A stretch of 64,000 bases of DNA from NCBI RefSeq assembly GCF_024362485.1, contig NZ_CP101457.1:1-64000 (forward strand). Direction: 5' to 3'. Source of the DNA: Natronobeatus ordinarius. GTDB taxonomy: Archaea > Halobacteriota > Halobacteria > Halobacteriales > Natrialbaceae. The stretch's first letter is position 1; every line of letters begins with the position of its first letter. Under the pieces are notes generated by a model. It searched no databases and had not been told where the DNA came from. It worked only from the letters and a program-made list of their open reading frames with translations. A program made the position numbers and the translations under genes. Positions 1 to 17,570 of this stretch are shown here, piece by piece.

Positions 1-2
1 AC

Positions 3-737
3 GAGGAGAACGAGGTCATTGATAGCGATCAGTTCGATGTGGAGCGCGCCCGTGCAAGTGAGGACACGCGCGAGGCACTCGCCTGGCTGCTGGCGAGCCG
101 ACTCAACACCATCACGGCGACGAACATGATCGCCCATGGGGTCGACGTCAATCGATTCAATATGATGACGTTCTTCGGGATGCCTCGTGGGACTGCTGAA
201 TACATCCAGGCAAGTTCCCGTGCAGGACGGTCCCGTCCTGGCCTCGTGTTCAACGTTGCACATCCCATCCGGGAGCGTGACCTGAGTCACTACCACTTCT
301 TCGAGAAGTACCACGCCTTCCTCGATCGGCTGGTCGAGCCCGTTCCGATCAACCGCTGGGCGAAAAACAGCGTCAAACAGACCCATCCGGGTCTATTCAT
401 GGGGCTGCTGCTCAACCACTATATGTACCGCGAGGGCGCCGGGAACCTCTACTTCGGTGATAACGCCGAGGAATTCGCTAACTCCGTCGACGAAAAAGAG
501 CTCCGCCAGCAGATGCTGGGAATGTTCGGTGATCCTGACGACCACGAGGAGTTCCAGGGCGATATCGAGGATCTTACGAAAGAGGCTCTCTCACAGCTCC
601 GGCTCGACGACGACCAGTGGACGAGCGGCCGCATCAAGCGCTCGCCGATGCGCAGCCTTCGGGACGTCGACGAGCAGCTCCAAATCCGGTCTGAGTACCG
701 CTACCGAGAAATCTTCGAAACCATGGACAACCGGTGA
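3..737 (+). CDS. drmA: DISARM helicase DrmA, C-terminal part (cut by window edge)
   Basis: The reading frame is open to the window edge, so only the last ~245 residues are seen. They hold the end of an SF2 helicase second RecA domain: motif V-like TNMIAHGVDVNRF, then motif VI-like EYIQASSRAGRSRPG. A helical C-terminal tail rich in Asp and Glu follows. It ends 6 bp before the DUF1998 gene, which is the drmA-drmB order of DISARM. In DISARM, DrmA and DrmB form a complex that binds and remodels incoming DNA. The family call rests on motifs V/VI plus gene order; motifs I-IV lie outside the window. A DUF1998-partner helicase of another system is the only real alternative. Confidence 0.85.
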   Translation, partial: EENEVIDSDQFDVERARASEDTREALAWLLASRLNTITATNMIAHGVDVNRFNMMTFFGMPRGTAEYIQASSRAGRSRPGLVFNVAHPIRERDLSHYHFFEKYHAFLDRLVEPVPINRWAKNSVKQTHPGLFMGLLLNHYMYREGAGNLYFGDNAEEFANSVDEKELRQQMLGMFGDPDDHEEFQGDIEDLTKEALSQLRLDDDQWTSGRIKRSPMRSLRDVDEQLQIRSEYRYREIFETMDNR

Positions 738-743
738 TCAACA

Positions 744-2705
744 ATGAGCATGCAACGTAGCCGCCACCAGATCCTGTATCAGTTCCTTCCCGGGAACACG
801 TTCGACTACAGCGACAAGCGCGGCATATGGCAGGTGAACCGCCTCGAAACCACTGACGCAAGCGGCCAGGTCGACCGGGAGTACATCGTCGAGCGTGTGT
901 TCGCCAGGGCGAAGAACTGGGACGGCGGTGAGCAGGGGTTCACGTCGAACCGACCCGCCCACTACGACTTTGCCGAGCCCAAGGAGGTTCGTGCCCGTCC
1001 GTTCCCGACGACTTTCTACTGCACGAGCTGCCAGAAGGTTCACGGGTACTACTCCGCGGATGACCTCAAGGGGAAAAACCAGGCGCTGAAGTGCCAGAAA
1101 TCGGGCTGCAACGGAGACCTGAAGCAGTTCCAGTTCGCCAGCGTCCACAGCTGTGGGGAGATCAGGCGGCTGTACCCCCAGAAGTGTCCCGAGCATGGCG
1201 ACCAACATATCGTCCTCGACACACAGGATAGCCAGCGTGCCCAGAACTTCAAATGGCGCTGTGACATCTGTGGGTGGGACACTCGGGTGAGCTACTATCA
1301 GAACTGTGGCTGTGACTACGTCCCGCCGGCCTACGAGCATGATCCGGACGAGGACAAGATGTACACCACCGTCCATCGTGCAGGCTCAACGTACTACCCG
1401 CACTACCTGACGACGGTGAACCTGCACACCTCGGGAATTGGGCACCTCCGCGGAAGCGAGGACGGGTCACGTAAGGCACTCGCCAAGCACCTCGGGCTCT
1501 CTGATTCCCCACTGCAGGCCGTCGACATGAACGAAGGGATTGAGGGAGTCGAAATAGATGATGACCGGAAGATCGAAGTCTACCAGACCGAACCCGAGGT
1601 CGAGTCGCTGGCCAAGGCCGAAGAGTGGCTCCGCGAGCACGGCGAGATTGACAGCCAGACTGTCGGTGAAGCCATCGCAGACCTGATCGACCTTAACGCG
1701 GGCGAGGACGCTGAGGAGATGACCGACGCCGGCGACGAACTCCTCCAGTACGTGCTCAGTCTCGAGGAACTCACCGCCCACACAATCGACGAGCTGGAGG
1801 GCGACGCTCGCAACGAGGGGTTCCCACAGAAGGCCGATAAGATCTCAACCTACTCCAACGATATCGAGCGTCTCGGGTTGAGGGAAGTTCGCGTTATCGA
1901 GGATTTCCCTGTTCAGACGTTCGTCTACGGGTACACGCGTGGTAGCCGTGAGGAGGATGAAGCTCGACTGAACGCCTTCTCCCAGAACGCAAGCAGCGGC
2001 GACGGGACCCCGATCTTCGTCGATACCTCAGAAACCGAGGCGACACAGTTCGACCTCGATCCAGCCGCGGTGTTACTCTGGCTGGCTGTCAACATCCCAG
2101 GAACCAGTGACGAAGACGAAGTTCGGGGGAACATCACGCTTCCTACACTCCCAGAGAACCCGGAGGAGGCCGACATCGATCGAGCACGGGCGGCTATCAA
2201 AGAGCTCTCGGAAGCTGAACAGTGGGCGTTCCTGCTAAATCATCTCGACCCCGTCGACCAGTACGGCCGATTCGAGACCACCACTGATGACACCGTCGAG
2301 GGTCAGGTGACAAAGTACGTCTTCGAGATGCTTCACACGCTCTCACACATCCTGCTGAAGCAGGCGAGTACCATCAGCGGGTTCGACCGGACGAACCTGA
2401 GCGAGTTCCTCTTCCCGCGTGCGCTGTCCGTGGTGATATACACCAACAACCGGGAGGATTTCAACATCGGTGGAATGACCACCATGGTCGAACAGCAACT
2501 GGACGATCTCCTGGGCCAGGCGAAAGCCCACGGGAACGAGTGCATGATGGACCCAGTCTGCTCACAGCGTGACGGAGCCTGTCTATCCTGTCTCCACGTG
2601 AGCGAGATCAGCTGTTCGTACTTCAACCAGGTCCTCTGTCGGGACTACCTGTTCGGGAGCAGACCCAACACGGACCGATCTATCGAGGGGTTCTGGCGAC
2701 TGTAA
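744..2705 (+). CDS. drmB: DISARM protein DrmB (DUF1998)
   Basis: A 653-residue protein lying 6 bp after drmA and 24 bp before drmC, so clearly one transcript. Cysteine pairs near residues 92-180 (CTSC, CQKSGC, CDICGW, NCGC) suggest zinc ribbons. The C-terminal third is the DUF1998 module, with HTLSHILLKQAS and a late cysteine cluster (CMMDPVC, CLSC, C.YFN..LC) that probably holds zinc. DrmB is a core DISARM subunit acting with DrmA. An acidic linker of ~150 residues (from about residue 250) splits the two cysteine-rich parts. DUF1998 also occurs fused to MrfA-type helicases, as in the helicase at 30190; here it is free-standing, as expected for DrmB. Confidence 0.9.
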   Translation: MSMQRSRHQILYQFLPGNTFDYSDKRGIWQVNRLETTDASGQVDREYIVERVFARAKNWDGGEQGFTSNRPAHYDFAEPKEVRARPFPTTFYCTSCQKVHGYYSADDLKGKNQALKCQKSGCNGDLKQFQFASVHSCGEIRRLYPQKCPEHGDQHIVLDTQDSQRAQNFKWRCDICGWDTRVSYYQNCGCDYVPPAYEHDPDEDKMYTTVHRAGSTYYPHYLTTVNLHTSGIGHLRGSEDGSRKALAKHLGLSDSPLQAVDMNEGIEGVEIDDDRKIEVYQTEPEVESLAKAEEWLREHGEIDSQTVGEAIADLIDLNAGEDAEEMTDAGDELLQYVLSLEELTAHTIDELEGDARNEGFPQKADKISTYSNDIERLGLREVRVIEDFPVQTFVYGYTRGSREEDEARLNAFSQNASSGDGTPIFVDTSETEATQFDLDPAAVLLWLAVNIPGTSDEDEVRGNITLPTLPENPEEADIDRARAAIKELSEAEQWAFLLNHLDPVDQYGRFETTTDDTVEGQVTKYVFEMLHTLSHILLKQASTISGFDRTNLSEFLFPRALSVVIYTNNREDFNIGGMTTMVEQQLDDLLGQAKAHGNECMMDPVCSQRDGACLSCLHVSEISCSYFNQVLCRDYLFGSRPNTDRSIEGFWRL

Positions 2706-2729
2706 CAATCCCGCATCTCGTTTCAACCT

Positions 2730-3659
2730 ATGTCCAGCCAACACCCAACCATTGATCGGACGCTGGCAATCGCCGATATTGCGGAGCATGATGAGACACT
2801 TCTGGACGAACTGGAGGGTCTCCTCCTCGTCGCTGCGGGCCGAGGTGAGCGTCTCTCTCCTGCTGCTGTTGCCCGCGATACGAGACTGAGCCGGGAAGGG
2901 GCAACCGACCTCTTCCGCCAGTTTCTGCAGTGCGATGTTGTCCAGCGAGAGTCTTACGGAACGGACCTGGTGGAGACCCGTTTTAGGGTCGACGCCACAC
3001 GAACCCGCCAGGTACTCGAGCATGCTCGTGAGTCGATTCGCATACTGGCGGCCCATCAAGAACGAGTCCCGACGACAACGGTAACGCCACTGATCACATT
3101 CCCCGACGATCCTGCATTCAGCGCCACGACTGCCGCTTCGTTCGGGATGGATGGACTGCTCTCGACGCTGGCCAGCAAGATCAAACGCTGTGACAGCGAG
3201 ATTATCCTGCTCTCCCCGTTTTTCGAGGGAGAAGGCTTCGGTCGTCTCGCCGACGTACTCCTCGATGCACTCGAACGGGGGGTCGAACTGACGATTGTCA
3301 CGCGCTATCTGTCGGATACAGACTCGCACAACTACCACGTCATCCAGTCGTTCATGGACCGCGTTGCGGAGCAGGAGGTCGCTTCACGCGTCTCGCTCGT
3401 CGACTATACGGTCTGGGACGATAGCATCCCGATGGAGAAGCGAACGCAAGATGGGGAGAACCCGCGGTTTACCCTCCACGCAAAGGTCATGCTGTTCGAC
3501 TCCCAAGCTGCGTATGTTGGAAGCGCTAACGTCACCGATTATGGGTTCGATCGGTACCTCGAACTCGGCGTGCTTCTCGAAGGTGCGAAGGTCACACCCT
3601 TCCGAGAGCTCTGTACCTTCCTCCTTGACTCCTCAGGTGCGGTTCGTGTCGATATCTGA
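2730..3659 (+). CDS. drmC: DISARM phospholipase D-like protein DrmC
   Basis: A 309-residue protein. The N-terminal ~110 residues look like a winged-helix region (LSPAAVARDTRLSREGATDL). The rest is a PLD-fold domain with one clear HKD motif, HAKVMLFDSQAAYVGSANVT (HxKx4D followed by GSAN), near residues 248-267. PLD nucleases usually need two such motifs, so either a dimer forms one site or the second motif is degenerate. It is the third gene of the drmA-drmB-drmC run. In published work on DISARM, DrmC was the least essential subunit. No membrane segment is visible; it probably acts in the cytoplasm on nucleic acid. Confidence 0.88.
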   Translation: MSSQHPTIDRTLAIADIAEHDETLLDELEGLLLVAAGRGERLSPAAVARDTRLSREGATDLFRQFLQCDVVQRESYGTDLVETRFRVDATRTRQVLEHARESIRILAAHQERVPTTTVTPLITFPDDPAFSATTAASFGMDGLLSTLASKIKRCDSEIILLSPFFEGEGFGRLADVLLDALERGVELTIVTRYLSDTDSHNYHVIQSFMDRVAEQEVASRVSLVDYTVWDDSIPMEKRTQDGENPRFTLHAKVMLFDSQAAYVGSANVTDYGFDRYLELGVLLEGAKVTPFRELCTFLLDSSGAVRVDI

Positions 3660-3822
3660 GTGGGTCACTTTCTCCGGTCAAGCATCAGACGATATCGTCG
3701 TGAAGACGACATCCGATCGCGGGATGGCATCGTGTTTCACGGTCGTTGAAAAGTATTAACTGTTTGCAAGATAGCGACTACGCTATAGCTTCGCTGTCGT
3801 ACCCATCCCTTTAGCCACCAAA
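3660..3822 (+). promoter_or_regulatory. Intergenic promoter region before drmMI
   Basis: A 163-bp gap in an otherwise tight operon. It holds an A/T-rich block (AAAAGTATTAAC near 3750) that could be a TATA element, followed by the small inverted repeat ATAGCG-ACTA-CGCTAT. This suggests that the methylase can be transcribed separately from drmABC, as would suit a system that must methylate before it restricts. No start site can be fixed by eye. Confidence 0.4.
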
Positions 3823-6800
3823 ATGACGGACTCCAGCACATACCGGACGAACCGCGACCTGTTCTCAAACCATTACCTGGACGACCATCTCCGAGACACG
3901 GAGCCCTGGAACGAGGTTCCAGACGCCGATGTTGAGGCGGCCTACGAGGAGATCACCGATCTCTGGACAGAAAAACAGGAACGTGTCGACGACTACAACG
4001 AGGCACAGTTAGAGAGGAACTTCATCCGGCCAATCTTCGACATCCTCGGTATCCCGTTCGAAATCGAGGAGACGGTCATGCGAAACGCTCGGCGACCCGA
4101 CTACGGATTCTTCCCAAGCGAGGAAGCAGCCGACGCTGCATTCGATCGCGAGAATTTCTACGAGGAAGCGACCGCCGTCGCCGACGCAAAGCGATGGGGA
4201 CGAAAGCTCGACACACGTGGGGAGGAAAAACGTGACTTCGAGAACCCGAGCTATCAGATCCACCGCTATCTCCAAGAGACGCCAGCCCAGTGGGCGGTCC
4301 TCACGAACGGCGAAAAGTGGCGGATCTACTACGGGCCAACGAGTCACCGACTGGACTCCTACTACGAGATCGACCTTCCTGAACTCCTCGACATCGTCGA
4401 TAGTGAGAGTGATTTTGAAGCGTTCAAAGAGTTCTACCTGTTCTTCCGCCAAGAAGCGTTCCTCCCCGATCACACCGGCGACTGCTTCCTTGACGACGTA
4501 TACGACGAGTCGAGCATCTTCGCCGAGGAACTGGGTGAGGACCTCCAGGAAAACATCTATGAGGCGATTCGCGTGCTCGCAGAGGGGTTCCTCGACACGA
4601 ACGACGACCTCGATGAGGGCGATCTCGAGCTGATCCACGACAGTTCACTCATCTACCTTTACCGGCTCATCTTCGTCCTTTACGCCGAAAGCGAGGGACG
4701 GAACCTGCTCCCCACGGACAACGAGATCTACAGCGGGAGTTACAGTCTGAACGAACTGAAACAGACGGTCGTCGAGAACCGTGACGCGACCCAGCAGCAC
4801 TACCAGACCTGGCAGACGGACCTCTGGGACCAGCTTGAGGAGCTCTTCATCCTGATCGACGAGGGTAGCCAGGGGCAGGGTATTCCAAAGGAGGACCTCT
4901 ACATTCCCGCGTACAACGGTGGGCTATTCAGGTCGGACCCAGACGACAGTGACAGCGTCGAGGCGCAATTCCTCTCAAATCATGAAGTCGGCGACGCGTA
5001 TCTCGCGGAAGTCATCGAACTTCTCACCCGTCACGAAGCCGACGAAGGGAAGGGGAAGGTGTTCGTCGATTACTCCTCGCTGGACGAGCGAAACCTTGGT
5101 TCCATTTACGAGGGACTGCTAGAGTACAAACTCGACGTGGCCGACGAGCCGTTGACCGTCGACGACGGTGAGTACACCCCCGCCGGGGAGGGCGATGACA
5201 TCACCATCGAGGCGGGAGAAGTGTATCTTCGAACCGACGACGGGGAGCGCAAGGCCACAGGATCGTACTATACACCCGAGTACGTCGTCGAGTACATCGT
5301 CGACGAGACGCTCGGGCCGCTGGTCGACGAGATACGCGCGGACCTCATGTCCCAGAGTGCGGACACGACTCATAGCCGAGAAGGTGGATTTGCCGACGAG
5401 TTCGCCGAACGGATTTTCGACCTCACTGTGTTGGACCCCGCGATGGGAAGTGGGCATTTCCCGGTCAACGCGGTGGACTACCTCGCCCGAAAGATCATCG
5501 ACGCCCAGGAGAAGCAGGACCGGCAGGCGATTGACTCCGAGGACGCCGAGGTGCGAGCACCGACGACGAAGGAGGGCGAACTACGGGACATCAACTGGGC
5601 CCGACGCAAAGTTGCTCAGCGCTGTATCTACGGCGTCGACGTCAATCCGCTCGCAACCGAGCTAGCAAAGGTCTCTCTCTGGCTGCGGACGCTCGCGGCC
5701 GAGCAACCGCTTGCGTTCCTGGACCACCACCTCAAGACCGGAAACTCGCTCGTCGGGAGTGACATCGAGGATGTGCTGTCCAACGGCGACGGTGCCAAGA
5801 CTGAAGACGGCCAGCTAACACTCCAGCAGTCGCTCGACCACACGCGCAAGCGTGCGATGGAGCACGTCACCGACCGCTTCCAGGACTTGCTCAACATTGA
5901 CAACGAGACGCTGGAGGATGCAAAGGAGATGGAAGCGGTCTACGACGACGTGCGTGACGACCCCCTGTACCAGAAGCTCCTTGCGATGGCTAACGTCCAC
6001 ACCGCTGACGCGTTCGGGCTTGATATACCCAGTGACGCCGACGAGCGAATGGCCCGCGCGCTCCACAGTGACACGTGGGAGAACATCGAAGAACAGGACT
6101 GGTTCAAGAGCGCGCAGGCGATGGCCGAGGAGGAACGCTTCTTCCACTGGGAACTGGAGTTCCCGATGGCGTTCTACGATCAGGATGGAGAGCGGAAAGC
6201 GGATGCCGGGTTTGATGCGGTTATTGGGAATCCACCATATGTGAACTCGAAATATCTTGCCAGCTCAGAGAAGAGCTACTTGGAGAACCGATATACCTCT
6301 ACTACTGGTCGATGGGATATTTACTTGCCATTTACAGAATTGGCGGTGGAAATCTCGACAGGGGTTGTCTCTTTCATCGAGCCTTCTATGTTCTTCAGAA
6401 GGGAATATGGTGAGGGTTTGCGTCAATTTATCACCGAGAATGCGACGGTAACTGAGATAGTTGATTTCTCTGATTTGACAATATTTTCAGGTGTCACTAA
6501 CTATGTGTCAATCTTAACACTCGACAAATCAGATATGGACGAGTTTGAGGTATTAGTTCCCAGTACGCCTCACGATTTCGCCAATTCTGAAAAAGATGAT
6601 ATTCATGGGTATTCCCTTCGAAATTCTGATCTTGGATCGGACGCTTGGCAGGTAATCCCCGCAGAGGTAGTACAAGTGATGGAGTCTTTGCCAACTGATT
6701 TCTCGAGATTAGATGAAGTCACAACGTCAATTACAGAAGGAATTCACTCTGGTCGGGATAGCGTGTTCTACGTAACTCAGGAAGTCATAGACTCGTGGGG

Positions 6801-7968
6801 GCTTGAGACTGAACTCCTCCACCCTTTGCTTAAAGGAAAGCATGTACACCGATATGAACCCTTAGAAACAGAGCTTTTCGTCATTTATCCATATGATGGC
6901 GAGAAGGTGATTTCTCCACAGGAGATGAGGGGAGAGTATCCTAACACTTGGGAATACCTCAACCACCATGAAGATGACATCAAGGGGCGGGAATATCTAA
7001 TGAACACATCCGGTTACGTTTGGTACGAACTATGGCGAAAGCGAGAGCGAGAGATTTTCTCGAATCCTAAGATTCTGCTCCCAATGATATCAGACGGGAG
7101 TAACTTCACTGTTGATCGAGGTGAGAAGGAATTTTACTTTAATACCAAGGTGAAGAGTATCCGAATGACGGATGATGCTAGTCTTCCAATCGACGATTTA
7201 TTAGGATTGCTTAACTCCAAGCTACTGGAATTTATTTATAAAGGAATTGCACCGCCTAAGGATGGAGGCTTTCGGGCATACACCACAGGTTTTCTCTCCG
7301 AACTCCAAGTCCCCGACTCAAAGGTTCCTGAAGTTGGTGAAAGTGCCAGAGAGCTGATTGAATATAGATCTGAAAAAGATAAACTTAATCTCTCATTGGT
7401 TGACTACCTCGGTAACTACGAAGAGGGCCCGAACCTCCCCGATATCGGCATCTTCCAGCCCACTAACCCCGAGTATCTCGACGCCACCACCGAGGACTAC
7501 GACAAACTCCAGATCGAACGAGCTCGCACGAAGCGCGACAGATCGACAGTCACCATCGAGGCGACAGCGCGCTACAAGCCAGAGGACGAAGAAGAGTTCG
7601 AGACCGACACCTATGGTTACACGGAGACAGAGTTCTTCAAGGCGTTCACGCTCACGAACCTGAGCGAGGAGGAGGCCACGCTGGTTGAGGCATTCGTCCC
7701 TGTCGCCGTCGATGAAGAGATTGCGAACTTCTCTGATAACGCCACAAAGACAATATCTCTGCTGGACCGGCTGAAGGCGATGACGCTGCCCGACCCCGAC
7801 GATGTCAAGGACGATCTCCGGCGGTACATAGAGAACCGTGAACGCGCCGACGAACTCGACCAGAAGATTGAGAAGACAGACCAGCTCATCGACGAGATCG
7901 TCTACGACCTCTACGATCTGACCGACGAAGAAATCAAGATTGTAGAAGAAGCCGTCGCCGACGACTGA
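3823..7968 (+). CDS. drmMI: DISARM class 1 adenine methylase DrmMI, type IIG-like
   Basis: A 1,381-residue protein. Residues ~60-160 resemble a PD-(D/E)XK nuclease-like domain (RRPDYGFF, then AVADAKRWG). Residues ~480-810 are an N6-adenine methylase: GSYYTPEYVVEYI, motif I TVLDPAMGSGHF, GVDVNPLATELAK, and catalytic motif IV IGNPPY near residue 802. Residues ~810-1190 form the presumed target-recognition region, and a coiled-coil tail ends the protein. This layout is that of Eco57I-like enzymes and of DrmMI. It would mark host DNA as self. The recognition region (6,200-7,400) has visibly lower GC and different codon use from the rest, suggesting domain exchange. BREX PglX has a similar layout, but no other BREX gene is present. 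Confidence 0.87.
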   Translation: MTDSSTYRTNRDLFSNHYLDDHLRDTEPWNEVPDADVEAAYEEITDLWTEKQERVDDYNEAQLERNFIRPIFDILGIPFEIEETVMRNARRPDYGFFPSEEAADAAFDRENFYEEATAVADAKRWGRKLDTRGEEKRDFENPSYQIHRYLQETPAQWAVLTNGEKWRIYYGPTSHRLDSYYEIDLPELLDIVDSESDFEAFKEFYLFFRQEAFLPDHTGDCFLDDVYDESSIFAEELGEDLQENIYEAIRVLAEGFLDTNDDLDEGDLELIHDSSLIYLYRLIFVLYAESEGRNLLPTDNEIYSGSYSLNELKQTVVENRDATQQHYQTWQTDLWDQLEELFILIDEGSQGQGIPKEDLYIPAYNGGLFRSDPDDSDSVEAQFLSNHEVGDAYLAEVIELLTRHEADEGKGKVFVDYSSLDERNLGSIYEGLLEYKLDVADEPLTVDDGEYTPAGEGDDITIEAGEVYLRTDDGERKATGSYYTPEYVVEYIVDETLGPLVDEIRADLMSQSADTTHSREGGFADEFAERIFDLTVLDPAMGSGHFPVNAVDYLARKIIDAQEKQDRQAIDSEDAEVRAPTTKEGELRDINWARRKVAQRCIYGVDVNPLATELAKVSLWLRTLAAEQPLAFLDHHLKTGNSLVGSDIEDVLSNGDGAKTEDGQLTLQQSLDHTRKRAMEHVTDRFQDLLNIDNETLEDAKEMEAVYDDVRDDPLYQKLLAMANVHTADAFGLDIPSDADERMARALHSDTWENIEEQDWFKSAQAMAEEERFFHWELEFPMAFYDQDGERKADAGFDAVIGNPPYVNSKYLASSEKSYLENRYTSTTGRWDIYLPFTELAVEISTGVVSFIEPSMFFRREYGEGLRQFITENATVTEIVDFSDLTIFSGVTNYVSILTLDKSDMDEFEVLVPSTPHDFANSEKDDIHGYSLRNSDLGSDAWQVIPAEVVQVMESLPTDFSRLDEVTTSITEGIHSGRDSVFYVTQEVIDSWGLETELLHPLLKGKHVHRYEPLETELFVIYPYDGEKVISPQEMRGEYPNTWEYLNHHEDDIKGREYLMNTSGYVWYELWRKREREIFSNPKILLPMISDGSNFTVDRGEKEFYFNTKVKSIRMTDDASLPIDDLLGLLNSKLLEFIYKGIAPPKDGGFRAYTTGFLSELQVPDSKVPEVGESARELIEYRSEKDKLNLSLVDYLGNYEEGPNLPDIGIFQPTNPEYLDATTEDYDKLQIERARTKRDRSTVTIEATARYKPEDEEEFETDTYGYTETEFFKAFTLTNLSEEEATLVEAFVPVAVDEEIANFSDNATKTISLLDRLKAMTLPDPDDVKDDLRRYIENRERADELDQKIEKTDQLIDEIVYDLYDLTDEEIKIVEEAVADD

Positions 7969-7986
7969 CCTATATTTACCACAACA

Positions 7987-9030
7987 TTACAGCCACGACA
8001 GCCCGGCGTTCAGCTCCTCGAGGAATCCCGGTCGCACCTGAACGCCCGGCGGGAACGCGATCGACTCGCCCTCTTTCTCGGTGATCGTCTCGCGGAGGAA
8101 CGGATGTGCAGGCTCGAAAGACGGGCTCGTCCGGATCCGATACTCACTGTCGACCGTGAACAGCGCGGCGTCGAACGCCCGGTGATGGAGCGAGTTCAGC
8201 ACGAGCACGTTCCCCGAGTGCTCTGCGAGGTCGGGGTGCTGGCTCCGCGGCAGTATGTGCGCCAGGTCGAGTAGCGACTCCTCACGGATACCAGTCATCG
8301 GGCAGGCATGCCCGTACCGTTCGAACGTCTCTGTCCGGAACGCTTTACTCACCATTGTCTCGGTCGTTTCGTAGCGCCGAACCTCTCCTTCCGTATCGAG
8401 CGGCTCGCCAGTCGGCCACTGAGAGACCTCTCCTTGCCTGACCCACTGCTTCCAGACCTCGGGCGCCTGGTCGTCGTTGTTCGTCTGCGCACGCTCGTGG
8501 AGCCACGAGACAGGAACCGCTTGTGTGTTGAGAATTGAGAAGTGAAAGCGATAGTTCGGTATCTGTTCTCCCGAATCGTCCTGATAGGTGTGTACCTCAA
8601 AGTGATCCGGGACACAAAGCCCACAGAACTCGACGACGCCGCTCTCTGGCTTCCGGAACACCAGCACGGGGGGTACCTCCTCACGCCGTCCCGAGGCAGC
8701 CCTGTCGAACGCTTCCTTGATCTTCGTGTTCTGCGCCGAGTCGTCGTACCGGAGACCCCTCTTCGCGTCGCCCCAGTAACTCACGTACCCTGCGTTGACC
8801 GCCAGTGTATCTTCCCACGGATCATCGTGCTGTGAGACGCCTGCATCGTTGGAGACGAGAATTAACGCGGCGGGCATCTCTGAGCGATCTGCGCTGAGGT
8901 CGCGGATTCCACCTGTGTTTTTGATTCCACTACCCAGTGGGCCGCGGATCCACCGCAGGAACTGGTCTTCCGCGTTCCTGAAACTCCCTGTGTCCCGATA
9001 GGCTTCGCCGACGCGGAACGCTCGCTGCAT
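7987..9030 (-). CDS. HNH endonuclease, McrA-like, antisense in DISARM island
   Basis: A 347-residue protein on the opposite strand, converging on drmMI with an 18-bp gap. The C-terminal ~110 residues carry an HNH nuclease: CPMTG, then LDLAHILPRSQHPDL, NVLVLNSLHHRAFD (DLAHI..N..LH..FD). The N-terminal ~200 residues are an unknown domain that may recognise DNA or modified bases, as in McrA-type modification-dependent enzymes; that is inference. Start ATG at 9030 lies beside the divergent promoter of the next gene. HNH genes are not core DISARM members, so this is either an accessory gene or an independent type IV-like system nested in the island. Confidence 0.75.
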   Translation of the reverse strand: MQRAFRVGEAYRDTGSFRNAEDQFLRWIRGPLGSGIKNTGGIRDLSADRSEMPAALILVSNDAGVSQHDDPWEDTLAVNAGYVSYWGDAKRGLRYDDSAQNTKIKEAFDRAASGRREEVPPVLVFRKPESGVVEFCGLCVPDHFEVHTYQDDSGEQIPNYRFHFSILNTQAVPVSWLHERAQTNNDDQAPEVWKQWVRQGEVSQWPTGEPLDTEGEVRRYETTETMVSKAFRTETFERYGHACPMTGIREESLLDLAHILPRSQHPDLAEHSGNVLVLNSLHHRAFDAALFTVDSEYRIRTSPSFEPAHPFLRETITEKEGESIAFPPGVQVRPGFLEELNAGLSWL

Positions 9031-9173
9031 GCTGTCATTCTGGTCACCAGTGGTTGAAATACATTGGTCTGATTAGCAGCGAATGACCGTTCAATCGCGG
9101 TCCAGTGTCGGCCCTGACTTCTGTTTAGACAACCGATAAACATATTTATGTTCAAGTACCCACATATTCGGTA

Positions 9174-9689
9174 ATGGGTTCAGATTCGGGGAATGTCGCT
9201 GAATTTCTCAAACAATACGCCTTCGAGCCGTCTGCAGACTACACAGTAGAAAGCGCGGAGAGGGGAGTGGAAAAGCTCGAATCAGGATGCAGTGCTTTTC
9301 TCGAGAAAGTGGGCTATGATTCTGATCGAATTGAGCACCGGGTGTATCTGGACCCGGAAGGATCGTCAGATCTCGATCAGTTTGTCGCTGATTTCGTGAT
9401 CCGGCAACGAACAACCGAATCAATCCGTATCCTCGCGTGCACGTTGATGGGTGAGAGGCATGATGTTAACCATGAGAGGAACTCTGTAACCTCAATGGAC
9501 CTTGCTTCTCGGTACTTCGATTATTTCGGTACTCTCGATTACCGCTTTTTTATCATATTCACAAACTATTATCTAATCATAGCAGAGCCGGATGGGTCTC
9601 TTGATGTATACGCCTATGACCGATTGACGAAGTCAGAAGCTGAAGAAATAAGGACACAGATCAGCCCTCTTCGAGAGCACGGTGACTAA
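9174..9689 (+). CDS. Unknown 171-aa protein between HNH gene and drmD
   Basis: I do not recognise this family. The protein is acidic and soluble, with an Asp-rich N-terminus and a C-terminal stretch of aromatic beta-like sequence (DYRFFIIFTNYYLII) that suggests a small alpha/beta fold. An A/T-rich element (CATATTTATG, about 30 nt upstream) suggests a leaderless transcript starting at this ATG. It ends 42 bp before drmD and lies on the same strand, so it may be co-expressed with it. Its GC content looks lower than that of drmD. Its constant companion role in DISARM is unproven. Confidence 0.6.
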   Translation: MGSDSGNVAEFLKQYAFEPSADYTVESAERGVEKLESGCSAFLEKVGYDSDRIEHRVYLDPEGSSDLDQFVADFVIRQRTTESIRILACTLMGERHDVNHERNSVTSMDLASRYFDYFGTLDYRFFIIFTNYYLIIAEPDGSLDVYAYDRLTKSEAEEIRTQISPLREHGD

Positions 9690-9731
9690 TTTGCGGAAAG
9701 TTAAGTCCGGCCGCCACATCTTGATATATCA

Positions 9732-12674
9732 GTGTCTGATTGCGCGTGTAATTTCGATGTCGGGGACCGCGTCAGCTTCGCGGGCGGTGAAGGCGAGCTC
9801 GTCAAGATCAATCATCGACCATCGGGCCAGTGTCTGCTCCACATCCTGACCGACGGCGATGACTCGAAGAAGCTCCCTGCTGCAGTTGTTGACCTGATAG
9901 ACAGCAGCGACGCGCTGCTCGAGAAGGGCGAGTTCGATGATCCGGAACGGTTCAACCTCCGTGCCAAGGCAGCCGAACTAGATCTCGCCCATCGCCAGGA
10001 CCGATTCGTCGCGCTAGAAAACAACCGCATCGATATCGCTCCCCACCAGGTGAAGGCTGCACATGAGATCCTCACCTCTTACGACCATCGCTACCTCATC
10101 GGCGACGAGGTGGGCCTCGGGAAGACGATCGAGGCAGCGATCGTCATCGAGGAACTCGCTGCCCGCGGACAGGCAGATCGCGTGCTCATCGTCGCCCCTG
10201 CGCCGCTTACCACGCAGTGGCAGGAAGAACTCCGCGAGAAATTCGACACGAACTACGTCATCTACGACCGCGATTACGTCGAGGCCAAGAAGGACGCCTA
10301 CCCTGCCGAGAACGTCTGGTCGCACGAAGACCGTATCATCACCTCCATCGACTTCGCCAAACAGGACGACATGCGTTCGGCGCTGAAGAACGTCCAGGAG
10401 GACTGGGACATCGCCCTCTTCGACGAGTCCCATCACCTCACCGCTCGCCGTGAGGGGAAGCGCGGCGTCGACAAAACGGACCGATACAGGGTTGGGGAGG
10501 TGGTTTCTGAAACCTCCGACGGGTTGCTGTTCCTGACCGGAACACCCCATAACGGGAAGCGTGATCAGTTCTACTTCATGATCTCGCTACTCGATCCCTA
10601 TCGCTTCCGCGACGAACACGGTGTCGACAAAGAGGGACTGCAAGACCTGATGATCCGTCGATTGAAGGACGAGATGTACGAGGCGGACGGGTCGCCAATG
10701 TTCCCCGAGAAGAACATTCAGACGCTCCCGGTTGGGTTCACAGAGGAGGAACGGCAACTCTACGACGACATCACGGAGTACATCACCGAGCACTATAACC
10801 TCGCCAGCCGGGAAGAGAACGACGCTGCGGGGTTTGCAATGGTCCTCTACCAGAAACGCCTCGTCTCCTCGATCTACGCGATTCAGCAATCCCTCCGGAA
10901 CCGAATGGAGTCCATCAAGGCGGGCGGTGCCGACCCGAGCGACCTCTCTCCAGTTACGAAGAGTCTGCTCGATGAGTATCGGGAGGACCCCGAGATGCTC
11001 ACGGAGGCACAGCGTGAACACGTCGAAGAAGAGCTTGGAGGTGCCGTTGCCTCTGGTGATCCGGAGAAGATCGAAGAAGAACTCTCGATTGTCCGTGACC
11101 TCTACAACCAGGCAAAGTCCATTCAGGTGGACTCAAAGGCAGAAAAACTGCGGGAGTATGTCGATGGGATTCTGGAAGAGGACCCTGACGAGAAAATACT
11201 CATTTTTACTGAATACACAGACACGCTCGAGTACCTCAAGGGCCGGGTGTTCGGAGACAGGGATATCGCGGAAATATACGGCGATCTCACCCAGTCTCAG
11301 CGCCAGCAGCAGTTCAAGAAGTTCGAAGGCTCGGCGAACGTGATGCTGGCAACGGATGCCGCTCGGGAAGGACTGAACCTGCAGTTCGCGCACCTCATGG
11401 TGAACTACGACCTGCCCTGGAACCCGACCCGGATCGACCAGCGTATTGGACGGCTACACCGCTACGGGCAAAAGGAGACTGTCGAAATTCGGAACCTGTT
11501 CTTCAAGGACACACGTGAAAGCATAATTCTCGAGAGCCTTCTTGAGAGAATCGACGAAATCGAGGACACACTCGGAATGAGTTCGGACGTCCTCGGGCTC
11601 GTACTCGAAGACGTCGATCTAGAGGAACAGATCATGTCCGCACTCGCGACCGGACAGAGTCCCGATACCGTTGTCGACGAGCTCGAGGCCATCGTCGAAG
11701 ACCAAGAAGAGGCCGTCCAGCGCGTCGACAAGGAACTCCTCATCCGAGATAAGTTCGACCTGAGCAAGGAAGACCGCGATATCCTCGATATCGTCGAGGA
11801 GAGCGCTACTGATACGGTCAGTGACGAGGACATCGAATATCTTGTCAGAACCGTCTGTCAAGAGTTCGGTGGTAGCCTCGAAAACGTTCGTCCCGGTCCT
11901 GCCGAAGACGGTGGTGATGTGTTTGATCTGATCGTTCCTGATCGAGTTACCAGTGACGATGTCGCGAGCCGATATGACGGTGCAACCTTCGACCGTGAGA
12001 ACGCGCTTGCAGACGAAGATCTCGAATTTATTACACTCGACCACCCCGTGGTCCGGGCAATGATGGCGTACTGTCTTGATACAGATGTTGTTGGTGGACA
12101 GACGGCTATCCTCACTGGGGGAGAAGAACTGAACACACCAGGACTCCTTTGTCATTACCGGATTGGCTATCTCTCAGGAACAGGTGATACGGTGACTGAG
12201 AAACTCGCACAGGTCTACGTCACCCCCGATGGCACGATTCAGACCGAGAACATCCACATTACGGGTGGACTGCCCCCATCAGCTATCGACGGACATCCCG
12301 CAATTGGTACTGTGGCCGCGCAGGCCGAACGGCTCGTCTCGAAAGCAGACGATGTGGCCTGGGAACTCATCGACGACCTCGCACAAGAAGCACGCGCAGA
12401 CCGAGAGCGAGAAGTCCGCATTCGTCGGGAGCACGCCAAGAACTATTTCGAGTATCGGATGGAAGATCTCGAAGAACGAATCGAGCAATTCGAAAAACGT
12501 GACCGTGCAGGTGAAGATATGAGCGCAGTACTCGCAAAGCACCGCAGCGAGCTTGCTGAATTACGAGAGGAGAAAAATGCAGAGATGACCCGGCTTGATG
12601 GGGAAGAACAGGTCGTTCCCGATGAACCCGATCTCGTGAATATGGCCGTCGTCGTCGACGCCTTCAATAACTGA
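9732..12674 (+). CDS. drmD: DISARM SNF2-family helicase DrmD (copy 1)
   Basis: A 980-residue protein starting at GTG. Residues ~7-55 form a small SH3/KOW-like module (FDVGDRVSFAGGEGELVKI). The SNF2/RapA-like ATPase follows: Walker A GDEVGLGKT near residue 123, DExH box FDESHH near 231, FLTGTPHNGK, then the second RecA domain with ILIFTEYTDT, LATDAAREGLNLQFAH and RIDQRIGRLHRYGQ. The tail (from ~860) is coiled coil. DrmD is the marker helicase of class 1 DISARM. The next gene, drmMII, starts 48 bp downstream. A close paralogue follows at 14263. RapA-type remodelers share these motifs, but the neighbourhood decides for DrmD. Confidence 0.87.
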   Translation: MSDCACNFDVGDRVSFAGGEGELVKINHRPSGQCLLHILTDGDDSKKLPAAVVDLIDSSDALLEKGEFDDPERFNLRAKAAELDLAHRQDRFVALENNRIDIAPHQVKAAHEILTSYDHRYLIGDEVGLGKTIEAAIVIEELAARGQADRVLIVAPAPLTTQWQEELREKFDTNYVIYDRDYVEAKKDAYPAENVWSHEDRIITSIDFAKQDDMRSALKNVQEDWDIALFDESHHLTARREGKRGVDKTDRYRVGEVVSETSDGLLFLTGTPHNGKRDQFYFMISLLDPYRFRDEHGVDKEGLQDLMIRRLKDEMYEADGSPMFPEKNIQTLPVGFTEEERQLYDDITEYITEHYNLASREENDAAGFAMVLYQKRLVSSIYAIQQSLRNRMESIKAGGADPSDLSPVTKSLLDEYREDPEMLTEAQREHVEEELGGAVASGDPEKIEEELSIVRDLYNQAKSIQVDSKAEKLREYVDGILEEDPDEKILIFTEYTDTLEYLKGRVFGDRDIAEIYGDLTQSQRQQQFKKFEGSANVMLATDAAREGLNLQFAHLMVNYDLPWNPTRIDQRIGRLHRYGQKETVEIRNLFFKDTRESIILESLLERIDEIEDTLGMSSDVLGLVLEDVDLEEQIMSALATGQSPDTVVDELEAIVEDQEEAVQRVDKELLIRDKFDLSKEDRDILDIVEESATDTVSDEDIEYLVRTVCQEFGGSLENVRPGPAEDGGDVFDLIVPDRVTSDDVASRYDGATFDRENALADEDLEFITLDHPVVRAMMAYCLDTDVVGGQTAILTGGEELNTPGLLCHYRIGYLSGTGDTVTEKLAQVYVTPDGTIQTENIHITGGLPPSAIDGHPAIGTVAAQAERLVSKADDVAWELIDDLAQEARADREREVRIRREHAKNYFEYRMEDLEERIEQFEKRDRAGEDMSAVLAKHRSELAELREEKNAEMTRLDGEEQVVPDEPDLVNMAVVVDAFNN

Positions 12675-12721
12675 TCACAGTTCCGAACGACTTTCCTCAC
12701 TCCCACCGTTTCGTTCGCACA

Positions 12722-14110
12722 ATGGATTCGGGACCATCTGCTATCGATCTCTTTTGTGGCGCTGGGGGGCTCACCGAAGGACTCAGACGGGCTGGATACG
12801 ACGTACGCTGGGCGATCGATTATGACGAATCTGCCGTCGAAACATACCGTGAGAACCACGGCGATCACGCTATTCGGGCAGATATCCGTGAAACGCACCC
12901 TGCGGAAGATGGTCCCGATATCGAGCCGGGCGATCTTGACCTCGTTGCGGGAGGGCCACCCTGCCCATCGTTCTCTACGATCGGTCGTTCAAAGCTCGGC
13001 TCTCTCGAGGATCGCTCCGTCGATGAGGACGATCGGAACGTTCTGTATCTTGATTTCCTCCGGTACGTCAAGCATTTCCAACCACGGGCGTTCGTCATGG
13101 AGAACGTTCCCGGAATGTTGACCGACACAGTCACTGTCGAGTCAGACACAGTCCAAGAGTCTCTCCCGATCGGGCCAGGACAGGAGGTTGAGCAGTCCCC
13201 GGTTGGTGAAGAGGTTCCTGTTACAGAGATTATCCTTGAGGAAATGAAGGGGCTTGGCTATACTGTAGACTGGTTCCTCGTCGACGCAGCGGATTTCGGT
13301 GTTCCCCAGCATCGAGAACGGCTCTTCTTCATCGGCCGGCGAACAGGAAAGGCTCTACCGGAACTCACCCGGTGGTCCACCCACCGAGAGCCGACCGACC
13401 GAGAGAAAGAGCAGCAGATGCAGATTCGTCCCGAACTGAGGGACAGCACTGATGAAGCCCAAGAGACGTTCAATACTGGTTTATCCTCTGTCCTCCCCCC
13501 TTTTGAGGCCGATCGGGAATACAGACATCCCTACCTCACCGTCGCAGACGCAATTATGGACTTGCCGCCGATTTCCCCTGGTGGGGGGATGCCACCGAGG
13601 CAAGCAACTGAGTATACGCTTCCTCCCGTCTCCCCGTATCAGGAATGGGCACGAAATATCACAGATGGCGAGGACTGGGAGGATCAGCCCCTTCGTAACC
13701 ACGACGCACGCTGGCACAATCATCTCGACCTCTCGATATACAAGCTGCTTGGGCACGGCGTCGGCTGGAACATCGGTCAGGTAAGTACTGGGCTCCAACC
13801 ATACCGCGACGACGTGTTTCCCGATAAGTACAAGAAGCAGAATCCCGCGAAGCCAGCGTCGACAATTCTCGCACATATCCAAAAGGATGGGCACATGTTC
13901 ATCCACCCGTCGGAGGCTCGATCGCTCTCTCCTCGAGAAGCGGCTCGTCTACAGTCGTTCAAGGACACATACTGGTTCCCGGAAAGCCGGACAAACGCGT
14001 ACCGCCTGATCGGCAATGCGGTACCACCTCGACTCGGGGAGGCAGTCGGTGTTGCGATTCGCCAGACAATTCTTTCAGATAGGCACTCAAGCACAGCCAG
14101 TACATCGTGA
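12722..14110 (+). CDS. drmMII: DNA cytosine-5 methyltransferase DrmMII
   Basis: A 462-residue C5-cytosine methylase with all main motifs in order: motif I AIDLFCGAGGLTEGL, motif IV GGPPCPSFSTIG with the catalytic Cys, motif VI FVMENVPGM, motif VIII VPQHRERLFFIG, then a recognition region, and motifs IX/X (SPREAARLQSF, GNAVPP). In class 2 DISARM this enzyme marks host DNA. Here it sits between two class 1 helicases, in a locus that also carries the adenine methylase drmMI. It may therefore be a second self-marking activity with its own recognition sequence. Length and motif order are normal, so the enzyme should be active. Confidence 0.9.
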   Translation: MDSGPSAIDLFCGAGGLTEGLRRAGYDVRWAIDYDESAVETYRENHGDHAIRADIRETHPAEDGPDIEPGDLDLVAGGPPCPSFSTIGRSKLGSLEDRSVDEDDRNVLYLDFLRYVKHFQPRAFVMENVPGMLTDTVTVESDTVQESLPIGPGQEVEQSPVGEEVPVTEIILEEMKGLGYTVDWFLVDAADFGVPQHRERLFFIGRRTGKALPELTRWSTHREPTDREKEQQMQIRPELRDSTDEAQETFNTGLSSVLPPFEADREYRHPYLTVADAIMDLPPISPGGGMPPRQATEYTLPPVSPYQEWARNITDGEDWEDQPLRNHDARWHNHLDLSIYKLLGHGVGWNIGQVSTGLQPYRDDVFPDKYKKQNPAKPASTILAHIQKDGHMFIHPSEARSLSPREAARLQSFKDTYWFPESRTNAYRLIGNAVPPRLGEAVGVAIRQTILSDRHSSTASTS

Positions 14111-14221
14111 CGAGTACTTGTCTTATTTATAAGGGTCCGAAATCAGCTTGCTAACAGTGAGTTGGCTACTTGAGGTCAAAATACGATTGCGAAATACTGT
14201 CCAGAGCGTACTCATACTATC

Positions 14222-14262
14222 TGCCAAAGGGTTAATTATACCTGAATAACAATATTTGCAGA
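14222..14262 (+). promoter_or_regulatory. Probable promoter of the second drmD
   Basis: The 152-bp gap after drmMII is A/T-rich. The block GGTTAATTATACC lies ~27 nt before the GTG start at 14263, at the right distance for a haloarchaeal TATA box and a leaderless transcript. This suggests that the second drmD has its own promoter. Confidence 0.5.
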
Positions 14263-17200
14263 GTGTCAGACGAGAATCCGTTCAAACCCGGGGACAGGGT
14301 ATCGTTCTTCGGTGGAGAGGGAATCGTTGTTCGCGTAGATGATGATTGTCTCCTTATTCATACGGATGATGGTCGCATAGTTAAACAGAAACCGGATCTT
14401 CCCCTGGTGTCAAAGATGGTTGATTTTGAAAGCGGTGAGAAGGTACAGTTCCCCGGCGGCGAGGGTGAAATCATAAAGATCGAAAAGCGCCCTGATCGTG
14501 CCGATCTGCTCTACGTCCACACAACTGATGGCGGCCTCAAGACGGTACCTGCCGACAAGAAAGGAGTCGAACCGTTAGCGAGTATTGCAGACCAGCTCTC
14601 ACTTGAGCAATTCGACACGGGATCGAGGTTCGATCTCCTCGAAAAAGCCGTCCGTTTGGATCTCGCCTACCGATTTGATCGATTTATATCACTCGAGGGA
14701 AACCGGATTGATGTGACGCCCCATCAGGTCGAAGCAGCTCACGAGATACTGAGTTCGCACGATCAGCGCTACCTCATCGGCGATGAGGTCGGGCTCGGGA
14801 AGACCATCGAGGCAGGAATCGTTATCGAAGAGTTGCTCGCCCGCGGTCGGGCTGAGCGGGCCCTGATCGTCACTCCCGCCTCGCTCAAAACGCAATGGCA
14901 GGAGGAGATGAAGGACAAGTTCGATCAGGAGTACGTCATTTACGACCGCAATTACGTGAATAGCGTCTGTCAAACGGCTTCAAAAGACGAGGTGTGGGAA
15001 CAGGACGATCTAATCATTACTTCGATCGATTTTGCCAAGCAGGATGATATGCTCGAAGCCCTCGAGAATACCGAGTGGGACATTGCAGTCTTCGACGAAG
15101 CTCATCACCTGACTGCTCGAAAAGAGAACGACGGGTCGCTCAGTAAAACAGACCGATACAATGTCGGCGAGGCTGTTTCTCCCAACACTGATGCACTGCT
15201 CTTCCTGACCGGAACACCGCACAAAGGGAAACACGATCAGTTCTATCTCATGATCGATCTCCTGGAGCCATACCGCTTCGAGGATGAACACGATATTTCC
15301 CCAGAGAAGCTCCGAGATGTGATGATTCGACGTCTCAAGAGTAATCCGAATATGGTTCACTCTGATGGCTCTCCGATGTTCCCGGAAAAGAAGATCCACA
15401 CGCGCCCAGTCGAGTTCTCTGAACAGGAACACAGGCTCTATGAGGACATCACCGATTATCTCCAGAATCACTATCGACTGGGTGAAGAACAGGAATCGCA
15501 CACAGCTGGGTTTACGATGGTTATCTACCAGAAGCGACTGGTCTCCAGTATCCGTGCAATACAGCGCTCACTCGAGAAACGAGCTCGGATTTTGCGAAAT
15601 GGTGGCCAGAATGGGAGTCTCTCACTGGTAGTCAAGAAGCTGCTGCCACAGTATCGAGAACGACCAGAAACTCTCACCGATAAGCAGCGTGAGCGTATTG
15701 AAGATGAGTTGCAGGAAGTTTCTGGCGGTCAAGGTCCCGAACATTTAAAGAAGGAGCTGGAGGTTCTCGAAGGACTTATTGAGCGCGCTCGATCGATCAA
15801 TGTGGACTCGAAAGCTCGAGAACTTCGAGAGTTTGTGGAAGGTCTGCTTTCGAAGGACTCGGATGAGAAGGTTCTCGTATTCACCGAATACACGGACACG
15901 CTCGAGTATCTCCGTGACGAGGTTCTCGATGATCACGATATCGCCCAGATCCACGGATCGATGGGACAACAGGTTCGTCGAGAACAGGTCGAGAAATTCC
16001 GCAACGAGGCGAATGTGATGCTGGCGACCGATGCGGCCAGGGAGGGTATCAACCTCCAGTTCGCGCACATCATGATAAACTACGACCTGCCCTGGAACCC
16101 GATCCGTATCGACCAGCGGATGGGTCGTCTCCATCGATACGGCCAAACCCGAGACGTCCATATCCACAACCTCTTCGTAAACGATACTCGAGAAAGCGAG
16201 ATTCTCGAACAGCTGATCGAGAAAATCGACCGGATCGAAAGCGATCTCGGAATGCACTCGGACGTACTGGGAATGGTACTCGACGACAGTGATTTCGACC
16301 TCGAAGAGCGGATTATGGACGCGGTTACGAACAATGAGTCGAGTAAGAAAGTCGTCGACGATCTCGATAGAATTATCGAAGAACGCAAAGAGGCAGTGAA
16401 AACGGTACAGGACAACTTCCTCATCAGTGACCAGTTCGGAGAGTCCGATCTCGAAGAGATACAGGAGTTGATCGAGGAGAGCAGAAAGGATCACGTCGGT
16501 CAAAGCGAGGTTCGTGAGCTCCTCGAGCTGTTTTTCGTGGAGTTTGATGGAGAAATCTCAGAACGGAGTGACAGTCGCTACAGCGGAGAAGTGTTCTCAA
16601 TCGATGTCCCGGGGGTCATCGAACTGAGTAGCGACGAGATTCGTGGTTCGTATACGCGAGCAACGTTCGACCAAGAGATTGCGAAAGAGGACAGTAACCT
16701 GGAGTTCCTGTCGGTGAATCACCCCGTCGTACAGTCCATTGTTGAGTACTGCCTCGACGGGAACTGGATCGATGGGCGAACGGTAGTGAAACGTACCGCT
16801 GACGAGTCGGCTGAACTAGGTCTCAAGTGTAACTTCCGGCTCAGTTATGAAACGGCAGACGGGAGGAACGAGACTGAGGAATTCGTATCTCTGTATGTAA
16901 GCGGTGATGGGGACGTCTGGTCTGAAATACCCGATAGCGATAGTTCGATTTCACCGGACAAAGTCGGGGATCACCCGGAGATCGATCCGATAACAAAGAA
17001 CGCCAGAGAGCTGATTGATGTAGCCAAGAGAGAAGCACAGCACCAAGTTGAGGCGATGGCTGAAGAGGCAGAGAAGGAAAAAGAAGAAAGCGTTGACATC
17101 AAGCGTCAGCACGCGGAGCGGTATTTCGAAAACGCCATTGACACCTGGGAAACCCGTCTGGAGGGGTATCAACGGGATCACCAGAAAGAGAAGAATATGG

Positions 17201-17349
17201 AACTCCCGATTCGGAACGCGAAATCCAAACTTAAGGAGCTTCGTGAGCAGCGAAAACACGAATTCGAGCAATTACGAGAGGAAGAATCGGTTCTCCCGAA
17301 AGCCCCAGAACTGGTCAACGCTGCCGTGATAGTTCCAGAAAACACATGA
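14263..17349 (+). CDS. drmD: Second DrmD-like SNF2 helicase (paralogue)
   Basis: A 1,028-residue paralogue of the gene at 9732, with the same motifs in the same order: GDEVGLGKT, FDEAHHLTA, FLTGTPHKGK, VLVFTEYTDT, LATDAAREGINLQFAH, RIDQRMGRLHRYGQ. Unlike copy 1 it carries two tandem N-terminal KOW/SH3-like modules: FKPGDRVSFFGGEGIVVRV and ESGEKVQFPGGEGEIIKI. The C-terminal coiled coil is also kept. Start GTG at 14263 follows a plausible TATA box. The two proteins have diverged throughout, so this is not a recent duplication; separate substrates or a hetero-oligomer are possible. No drmA/B/C follow, so the island ends here. Confidence 0.82.
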   Translation: MSDENPFKPGDRVSFFGGEGIVVRVDDDCLLIHTDDGRIVKQKPDLPLVSKMVDFESGEKVQFPGGEGEIIKIEKRPDRADLLYVHTTDGGLKTVPADKKGVEPLASIADQLSLEQFDTGSRFDLLEKAVRLDLAYRFDRFISLEGNRIDVTPHQVEAAHEILSSHDQRYLIGDEVGLGKTIEAGIVIEELLARGRAERALIVTPASLKTQWQEEMKDKFDQEYVIYDRNYVNSVCQTASKDEVWEQDDLIITSIDFAKQDDMLEALENTEWDIAVFDEAHHLTARKENDGSLSKTDRYNVGEAVSPNTDALLFLTGTPHKGKHDQFYLMIDLLEPYRFEDEHDISPEKLRDVMIRRLKSNPNMVHSDGSPMFPEKKIHTRPVEFSEQEHRLYEDITDYLQNHYRLGEEQESHTAGFTMVIYQKRLVSSIRAIQRSLEKRARILRNGGQNGSLSLVVKKLLPQYRERPETLTDKQRERIEDELQEVSGGQGPEHLKKELEVLEGLIERARSINVDSKARELREFVEGLLSKDSDEKVLVFTEYTDTLEYLRDEVLDDHDIAQIHGSMGQQVRREQVEKFRNEANVMLATDAAREGINLQFAHIMINYDLPWNPIRIDQRMGRLHRYGQTRDVHIHNLFVNDTRESEILEQLIEKIDRIESDLGMHSDVLGMVLDDSDFDLEERIMDAVTNNESSKKVVDDLDRIIEERKEAVKTVQDNFLISDQFGESDLEEIQELIEESRKDHVGQSEVRELLELFFVEFDGEISERSDSRYSGEVFSIDVPGVIELSSDEIRGSYTRATFDQEIAKEDSNLEFLSVNHPVVQSIVEYCLDGNWIDGRTVVKRTADESAELGLKCNFRLSYETADGRNETEEFVSLYVSGDGDVWSEIPDSDSSISPDKVGDHPEIDPITKNARELIDVAKREAQHQVEAMAEEAEKEKEESVDIKRQHAERYFENAIDTWETRLEGYQRDHQKEKNMELPIRNAKSKLKELREQRKHEFEQLREEESVLPKAPELVNAAVIVPENT

Positions 17350-17570
17350 GTCAAGCATAATATTACCCTGACCTATTCACCCACACCCATCATATGATAT
17401 ATATTATTTAAGTTGGAAGAGAGTCTCCAAAAGATCTAACATCTATTGAGAGGATTTACCAGCATTGTCGACAACGAAAAGACTTCACGAGAGCGGGATT
17501 GCGTTGGCCTATGAGAAGTTCGTCAAGGCTGGGTACCGGATTTGACATCGTTCGCGAACACGGGGCAGAT

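What the first reader, a model, noticed from the sequence alone, without database searches (positions are those of the whole stretch)
6200..7400. Recognition region of DrmMI looks swapped in
The line 6481-6540 has 21 G/C of 60 by my count; 5401-5460 in the same gene has 34 of 60. The low-GC block starts right after the NPPY motif and ends near the coiled-coil tail, the place where target-recognition domains sit. Exchange here would change the methylated sequence and so the self-mark.
Basis: partly seen in the sequence, partly recalled or inferred. Interest (0 to 1): 0.6.

Follow-up and report, generated by a model that had tools for sequence, protein, structure and literature searches.

The report
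Swapped DNA-reading block in DISARM methylase
In salt-loving archaea the part of an antiviral DNA-marking enzyme that chooses which DNA word to mark has been exchanged like a cartridge while the rest of the gene stayed the same, and these cartridges are AT-rich in most carriers, whatever the host.

Summary
Relatives show real exchange. Two Natrinema relatives are 91-95% identical upstream and 73-86% in the tail, but 11-30% in the block. The DISARM operon is collinear at 87-90% DNA identity on both sides and breaks at 6242-6245 (just after the NPPY codons) to 7382-7400. Backbone and block trees reject each other (AU p about 1e-42 and 6e-52), and the window's block has its nearest kin in other backbone clades. 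The unit is larger than a TRD: second half of the methylase fold plus the TRD. The low GC is not a scar of one import: in 67 of 85 homologues the block is GC3-poor too (median 0.44 against 0.80), uncorrelated with host backbone GC3, and hsdS genes show the same (26 of 30 loci). So 'swapped' is right, but low GC belongs to the specificity pool. No donor, silent cassette or invertible repeat was found. The changed methylation motif is inferred, not shown. The kind is known (TRD exchange in Type I and III systems); DISARM DrmMI as a case, and host-independent AT-richness, are the new points.

The parts
3823..7968 (+). drmMI, 1381 aa DISARM N6-adenine methyltransferase
   Evidence: PADLOC DrmMI E 1.5e-95; Pfam Eco57I and TaqI_C
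3823..6240 (+). conserved backbone: N-terminal region and first half of methylase fold, GC3 0.76
   Evidence: 91-95% identical to L003/L004 over residues 1-790; GC3
5434..5454 (+). SAM-binding motif DPAMGSG
   Evidence: read in translation; invariant columns of A1; motif role recalled
6178..6240 (+). GC-poor shoulder: protein conserved, GC3 already low
   Evidence: GC3 break at 6178; mean GC3 of 73 homologues 0.52-0.53 in the last 20 codons before the NPPY end
6229..6240 (+). catalytic motif NPPY = 5' exchange junction
   Evidence: identity break at residues 806-809 in 11 of 13 pairs; blastn ends at 6242-6245
6241..7383 (+). exchanged block: rest of methylase fold plus target-recognition domain, GC3 about 0.44
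   Evidence: 11-30% identity against 91-95% upstream and 73-86% in the tail, L003 and L004; AU tests
6241..6486 (+). part of the Eco57I methylase domain inside the exchanged block (residues 807-888)
   Evidence: Pfam Eco57I match 601-888; strands after NPPY in model
6823..7305 (+). TaqI-like C-terminal specificity domain (TRD), residues 1001-1161
   Evidence: Pfam TaqI_C E 1.8e-10; fold match to CamA, M.BseCI
7384..7419 (+). LNLSLVDYLGNY, usual 3' junction anchor
   Evidence: 3' break at residues 1185-1194 in 8 of 13 pairs, further downstream (1212-1267) in the other 5
7420..7965 (+). conserved C-terminal tail, GC3 0.76
1..737 (+). C-terminal end of drmA (rest at the far end of the contig, L060)
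   Evidence: PADLOC DrmA, profile 182-1001 then 1001-1232; N. pallidum collinear across the joint
744..2705 (+). drmB
   Evidence: PADLOC DrmB E 1.1e-53
2730..3659 (+). drmC (PLD nuclease)
   Evidence: PADLOC DrmC E 2e-13; PLDc_2
9732..12674 (+). drmD-like SNF2 helicase
   Evidence: PADLOC BrxHII 1.3e-168, DrmD 5.7e-112
12722..14110 (+). drmMII-like cytosine-5 methylase, not exchanged against the two Natrinema relatives
   Evidence: inside unbroken 87% blastn alignments

Best explanation
drmMI of this plasmid-borne DISARM system belongs to a haloarchaeal gene family whose specificity module is repeatedly replaced by homologous exchange. Shown: the unit runs from the catalytic NPPY motif through the rest of the methylase fold and the TaqI-like target-recognition domain to a conserved LNLxLxDYLG anchor; it is unrelated between near-identical genes and related between distant ones; drmA, drmB, drmC, the HNH gene, drmD and drmMII around it are not exchanged between the compared Natrinema strains. 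Inferred: incoming DNA recombines in the well-conserved flanks, so a cell swaps its DNA word in one step while keeping the catalytic half and its fit to DrmA and DrmB, and the host must be re-marked. The low GC is a lasting feature of the whole pool of specificity modules, not a clue to one foreign donor.
For: GC3 step. L003/L004/L032: upstream 83-95%, block 11-32%, tail 69-86%. 234 of 253 pairs with backbone score ratio above 0.8 have block ratio below 0.3; correlation of backbone with block 0.14, with tail 0.54. Junction at NPP[YW] in 11 of 13 pairs. Operon collinear at DNA level from about 3 to 14 kb, broken only there in blastn against both Natrinema relatives. AU tests reject congruence both ways. 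Block kin in foreign backbones: L108, L074, L109, L110, L111. Named plasmids agree: DL31 84/30/82%, Halarchaeum 74/21/76%, Halalkalicoccus 67/16/76% for backbone, block and tail. GC-poor blocks in 67 of 85.
Against: No donor above 53% identity was found and no virus relative, so no single event is caught. Methylation motifs were not measured. Eighteen of 85 homologues lack a dip of 0.15 or more, and a high-GC clade of seven has blocks better conserved than its backbone, so exchange is not universal. Three-taxon polarisation of changes was uninformative.
Confidence: 0.87

Rival explanations
1. One recent import: the block came lately from an AT-rich organism and has not yet adapted to the host.
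For: GC3 0.44 in a 0.76 gene; AT-rich relatives exist outside the class: L178/L179, loci of 39% GC, 37% identity to the window block.
Against: Nearest kin are haloarchaeal (50-53%) and equally AT-rich blocks in GC-richer genes. The dip occurs in 67 of 85 homologues. Of 35 same-backbone same-block pairs, 31 have a block four-fold difference of 0.6 or more, and in 29 of the 31 both blocks stay at or below 0.60 GC4.
Confidence: 0.08
2. Hypervariation in place: diversifying selection on DNA contacts, no exchange.
For: ConSurf in the BrxX paper calls the TRD the most variable part (PMC11842806, passages).
Against: Block and backbone trees reject each other; blocks reappear in distant backbones; the break is step-like at one codon. 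Residues 1-400 in 49 rows are under 45% identical to the window and keep a median GC3 of 0.82, so divergence alone does not lower GC.
Confidence: 0.03
3. Switching within one genome by inversion or silent cassettes, as in phase-variable hsdS.
For: Phase variation is reported for pglX (PMC11341690, passages). Some relatives are split or end at contig edges.
Against: One copy only in the own genome by DNA and by protein. No inverted repeat of 40 nt or more in 2500-20000. The split copy in L050 has short tandem duplications, one ending in N, and extra ORFs, not a cassette array.
Confidence: 0.03

Closest known systems
TRD movement in Type III Mod genes (passage in PMC3983042)
   Same: recognition segment moves between genes by recombination at conserved methylase motifs, across species
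   Different: there Mod genes of H. pylori; here a gamma-type DISARM methylase of archaea, with half of the methylase fold moving along
hsdS TRD exchange in Type I systems (PMC5399793, PMC7557576: search listings only)
   Same: conserved frame, exchangeable recognition domains; in haloarchaea the same AT-richness
   Different: separate subunit with another fold; here the module is inside the methylase
BREX PglX/BrxX (PMC11341690, PMC11842806: passages)
   Same: methylase fused to TRD; TRD most variable; fold match E 6.9e-13
   Different: different system and C-terminal region; exchange from NPPY on is not described in the passages seen
CamA and M.BseCI (PDB)
   Same: best sequence and fold matches; the CamA sequence match covers residues 792-1158, NPPY to TRD
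   Different: stand-alone methylases of about 580 aa

Membership tests
DISARM | drmA, drmB, drmC next to a methylase gene | tested here: met
   PADLOC hits in order drmA-drmB-drmC-drmMI
DISARM | drmD and/or drmMII partner genes | tested here: met
   DrmD-like at 9732-12674 and DrmMII-like at 12722-14110; the top helicase hit is BrxHII, so the DrmD label is by context
DISARM | restricts unmethylated phage or virus DNA | not testable with these tools
   needs infection assays
gamma-class N6-adenine methyltransferase | SAM motif before NPPY, TRD after it | tested here: met
   class definition recalled and in PMC11341690 passages
exchangeable TRD module | conserved flanks with unrelated centres | tested here: met
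exchangeable TRD module | tree conflict and same block in different backbones | tested here: met
exchangeable TRD module | change of methylated motif | not testable with these tools
   no methylome held
phase-variable specificity locus | second cassette or inverted repeats in the genome | tested here: not met

The most novel reading that the evidence does not exclude
DNA-specificity modules of haloarchaea sit at their own low base composition (GC3 about 0.4) inside GC-rich genes, because alleles too different to pair do not take part in the homologous recombination that holds GC high elsewhere. Drift towards the AT-biased mutational balance then goes unopposed. The step inside one gene would be a natural experiment on what keeps genomes GC-rich.
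Probability: 0.3. Interest if true: 0.75.

Novelty: new member of a known kind. Interest (0 to 1): 0.5.

Why it matters
It indicates that DISARM self-marking probably changes in one recombination step without touching the effector genes, so neighbours in one brine could carry the same system with different passwords. The same gene also holds a sharp, family-wide composition step that cannot be blamed on expression, strand or replicon, which helps to ask why exchanged DNA is AT-rich.

Tried and rejected
Donor hunt: P0002 in 391 genomes of the class (100 with a match at E 1e-20 or better, best after itself 53%), 392 of the phylum (31 at 1e-30), viral contigs (1 pattern stretch, none confirmed), plasmids (136 records, all under 60%). 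No donor.

Amelioration test by outgroup: near-even W>S and S>W counts in the block, but the outgroups are saturated at third positions in most trios, so the test says nothing either way; dropped. The pair test argues against amelioration only if blocks were co-inherited with their backbones, which is not proven.

GC-biased gene conversion as cause: PMC8223754 (passages) mentions it as compatible with haloarchaeal GC, but its own experiment found no GC effect on conversion direction in Haloferax volcanii; this speaks against the mechanism in the novel case. PMC9997560 (abstract and passages) gives a mutational balance of about 20% GC in Halobacterium salinarum, which fits an AT pull.

L050 as an example of a cassette: short exact tandem duplications, one with an N, look like assembly or insertion effects; dropped.

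Rows dropped before counts: of the candidate ORF rows listed, 24 were left out (same gene fetched twice, split or contig-edge copies, two distant ones), leaving 52; of 40 added, six share only residues after about 465-797 and are another protein, and L019 repeats L020, leaving 85. Pair counts use 3403 pairs because some rows lack a segment. In one search, twelve rows (eleven with a dip under 0.1 and L052) were left out of the mean profile, and rows without the motif pattern fell out (73 used at the 5' side, 47 at the 3' side). The first hsdS script lost 17 of 30 loci by strand; one search replaced it with all 30. The trees used 34 chosen rows of 85, and the groups tested were named after seeing the trees.

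Full report
What is there. The window begins inside a DISARM operon on a 133,578-base contig. DrmA is split across the contig ends (L060 10492-13578 and window 1-737), and N. pallidum is collinear across the joint, so the replicon is most likely circular. The order is drmA, drmB, drmC, drmMI, an HNH gene with an AspBHI-type N-terminus on the other strand, an unknown 171-aa ORF, a drmD-like helicase, a drmMII-like cytosine methylase and a second helicase.

The observation. The block is residues about 786-1193 in GC and about 807-1187 in identity.

Similarity. In 52 full-length homologues, L003 and L004 are 91-95% identical in the three upstream segments (residues 1-790), 11-30% in the four block segments (804-1195), and 73-83% in the last segment (1231-1381). 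L032 of Halorubrum ezzemoulense gives 83-93, 21-32 and 84%. At DNA level, blastn runs without a break from 1 to 6245 and from 7400 to 14086 against N. pallidum (89.8 and 87.0%), and from 2949 to 6242 and 7382 to 14086 against N. gari (88.0 and 87.2%). The drmMII gene lies inside the unbroken part, so its recognition region has not been exchanged between these strains. Against N. pallidum, identity stays at 0.61-0.71 up to about 7800 and only then recovers, whereas against N. gari it recovers by 7450: the 5' edge is fixed, the 3' edge varies.

Junction. In 13 chosen high-backbone, low-block pairs, which share members, the 5' break is at residues 806-809 in 11 and at 792 in 2; the 3' break is at 1185-1194 in 8 and 1212-1267 in 5. 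In two AT-rich contigs from the same phylum but outside the class, L178 and L179, the part before NPPY is 84% identical and the part after it 41%; the DNA match ends 11 bases past NPPY. So the junction is probably not confined to DISARM or to haloarchaea.

Trees. With 34 rows, the backbone puts the window with L003, L004, L032 and L123 (100% SH-aLRT); the block puts it with L108, L074 and L109 (98%), then L110 and L111. Holding the first group together on block data costs 866 log units, and holding the second on backbone data costs 1682.

Composition. In 85 homologues the block's GC3 has median 0.44 against 0.80 for the backbone. It is 0.15 or more lower in 67 and 0.25 or more in 52, within 0.1 in 13, and uncorrelated with backbone GC3 (Spearman 0.045). 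The mean profile of 73 genes drops in the last 20-30 codons before the NPPY end, and rises gradually over 100 codons on the 3' side in 47 genes. Exceptions include seven genes of a high-GC clade whose blocks are better conserved than their backbones, and the pair L016/L017, where backbone (92%) and block (90%) have stayed together. Where specificity is stable, the dip tends to be absent; but L022/L023 and L021/L045 also kept their block and do have the dip, so this is a tendency, not a rule. hsdS in 30 loci of the same family: median GC3 0.43 against 0.72 for the longest neighbouring ORF, 26 of 30 lower by 0.15 or more.

How it probably works. The Eco57I match (residues 601-888) and the TaqI_C match (1001-1161) show that the exchanged unit holds the end of the methylase fold and the TRD. 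The model (mean pLDDT 75.5, pTM 0.56) has strands after NPPY before the TRD, and its best solved matches are CamA and M.BseCI, enzymes in which this stretch lines the DNA (recalled). Swapping it should change the methylated word; that is inference. DrmA and DrmB are proposed to sense methylation in the Serratia system (PMC9142583, passages), so a new motif would require re-marking of the host genome; how cells survive the change is open.

Why AT-rich. Three readings remain: constant import from an AT-rich pool, a steady state under AT-biased mutation without a GC-restoring force, or selection on codons in the block. The pair test favours a steady state; it is conditional on co-inheritance. The experiment in PMC8223754 does not favour GC-biased conversion.

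Literature. Searches listed no paper whose title or abstract start reports recognition-block exchange in DrmMI or AT-rich recognition blocks in haloarchaea; only listings and the passages named above were read, and the library is partial. Passages on DISARM in PMC7365801, PMC9716671 and PMC10273834 do not describe it either. The passage in PMC3983042 shows that movement at conserved methylase motifs is known for Type III systems, which sets the novelty verdict.

Noticed in passing
window 7987-9030 (-): HNH nuclease with AspBHI-type N-terminus (methylation-dependent type) lies between drmMI and a cytosine-5 methylase gene in one island; possible conflict or division of labour.
   Followed up: no
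window 9001-9750: Second GC-poor patch (0.47-0.50) with a 171-aa ORF without family hits; identity to both Natrinema relatives dips there.
   Followed up: no
window 9732-12674 and 14263-17349: Two diverged SNF2 helicases of the DrmD/BrxHII type with 69-79% DNA repeats between them.
   Followed up: no
window 18091-18217 and 19844-19886: 43-nt repeats around a Cdc6/Orc1 gene (18347-19693), probably a replication origin.
   Followed up: no
L178, L179: AT-rich archaeal methylase genes show the same kind of exchange with the junction at NPPY.
   Followed up: partly
haloarchaeal hsdS loci L148-L177: hsdS is GC3-poor beside GC-rich neighbours in 26 of 30 loci.
   Followed up: partly
L050: A second DrmMI-like copy in N. 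pallidum is split near the NPPY junction, with extra ORFs and short tandem duplications in between.
   Followed up: partly
NC_001869.1 and NC_002608.1 103476-109045: Halobacterium salinarum plasmids carry a relative interrupted by an ISH27-2 element, while NC_010366.1 and NC_010367.1 show one methylase feature.
   Followed up: no
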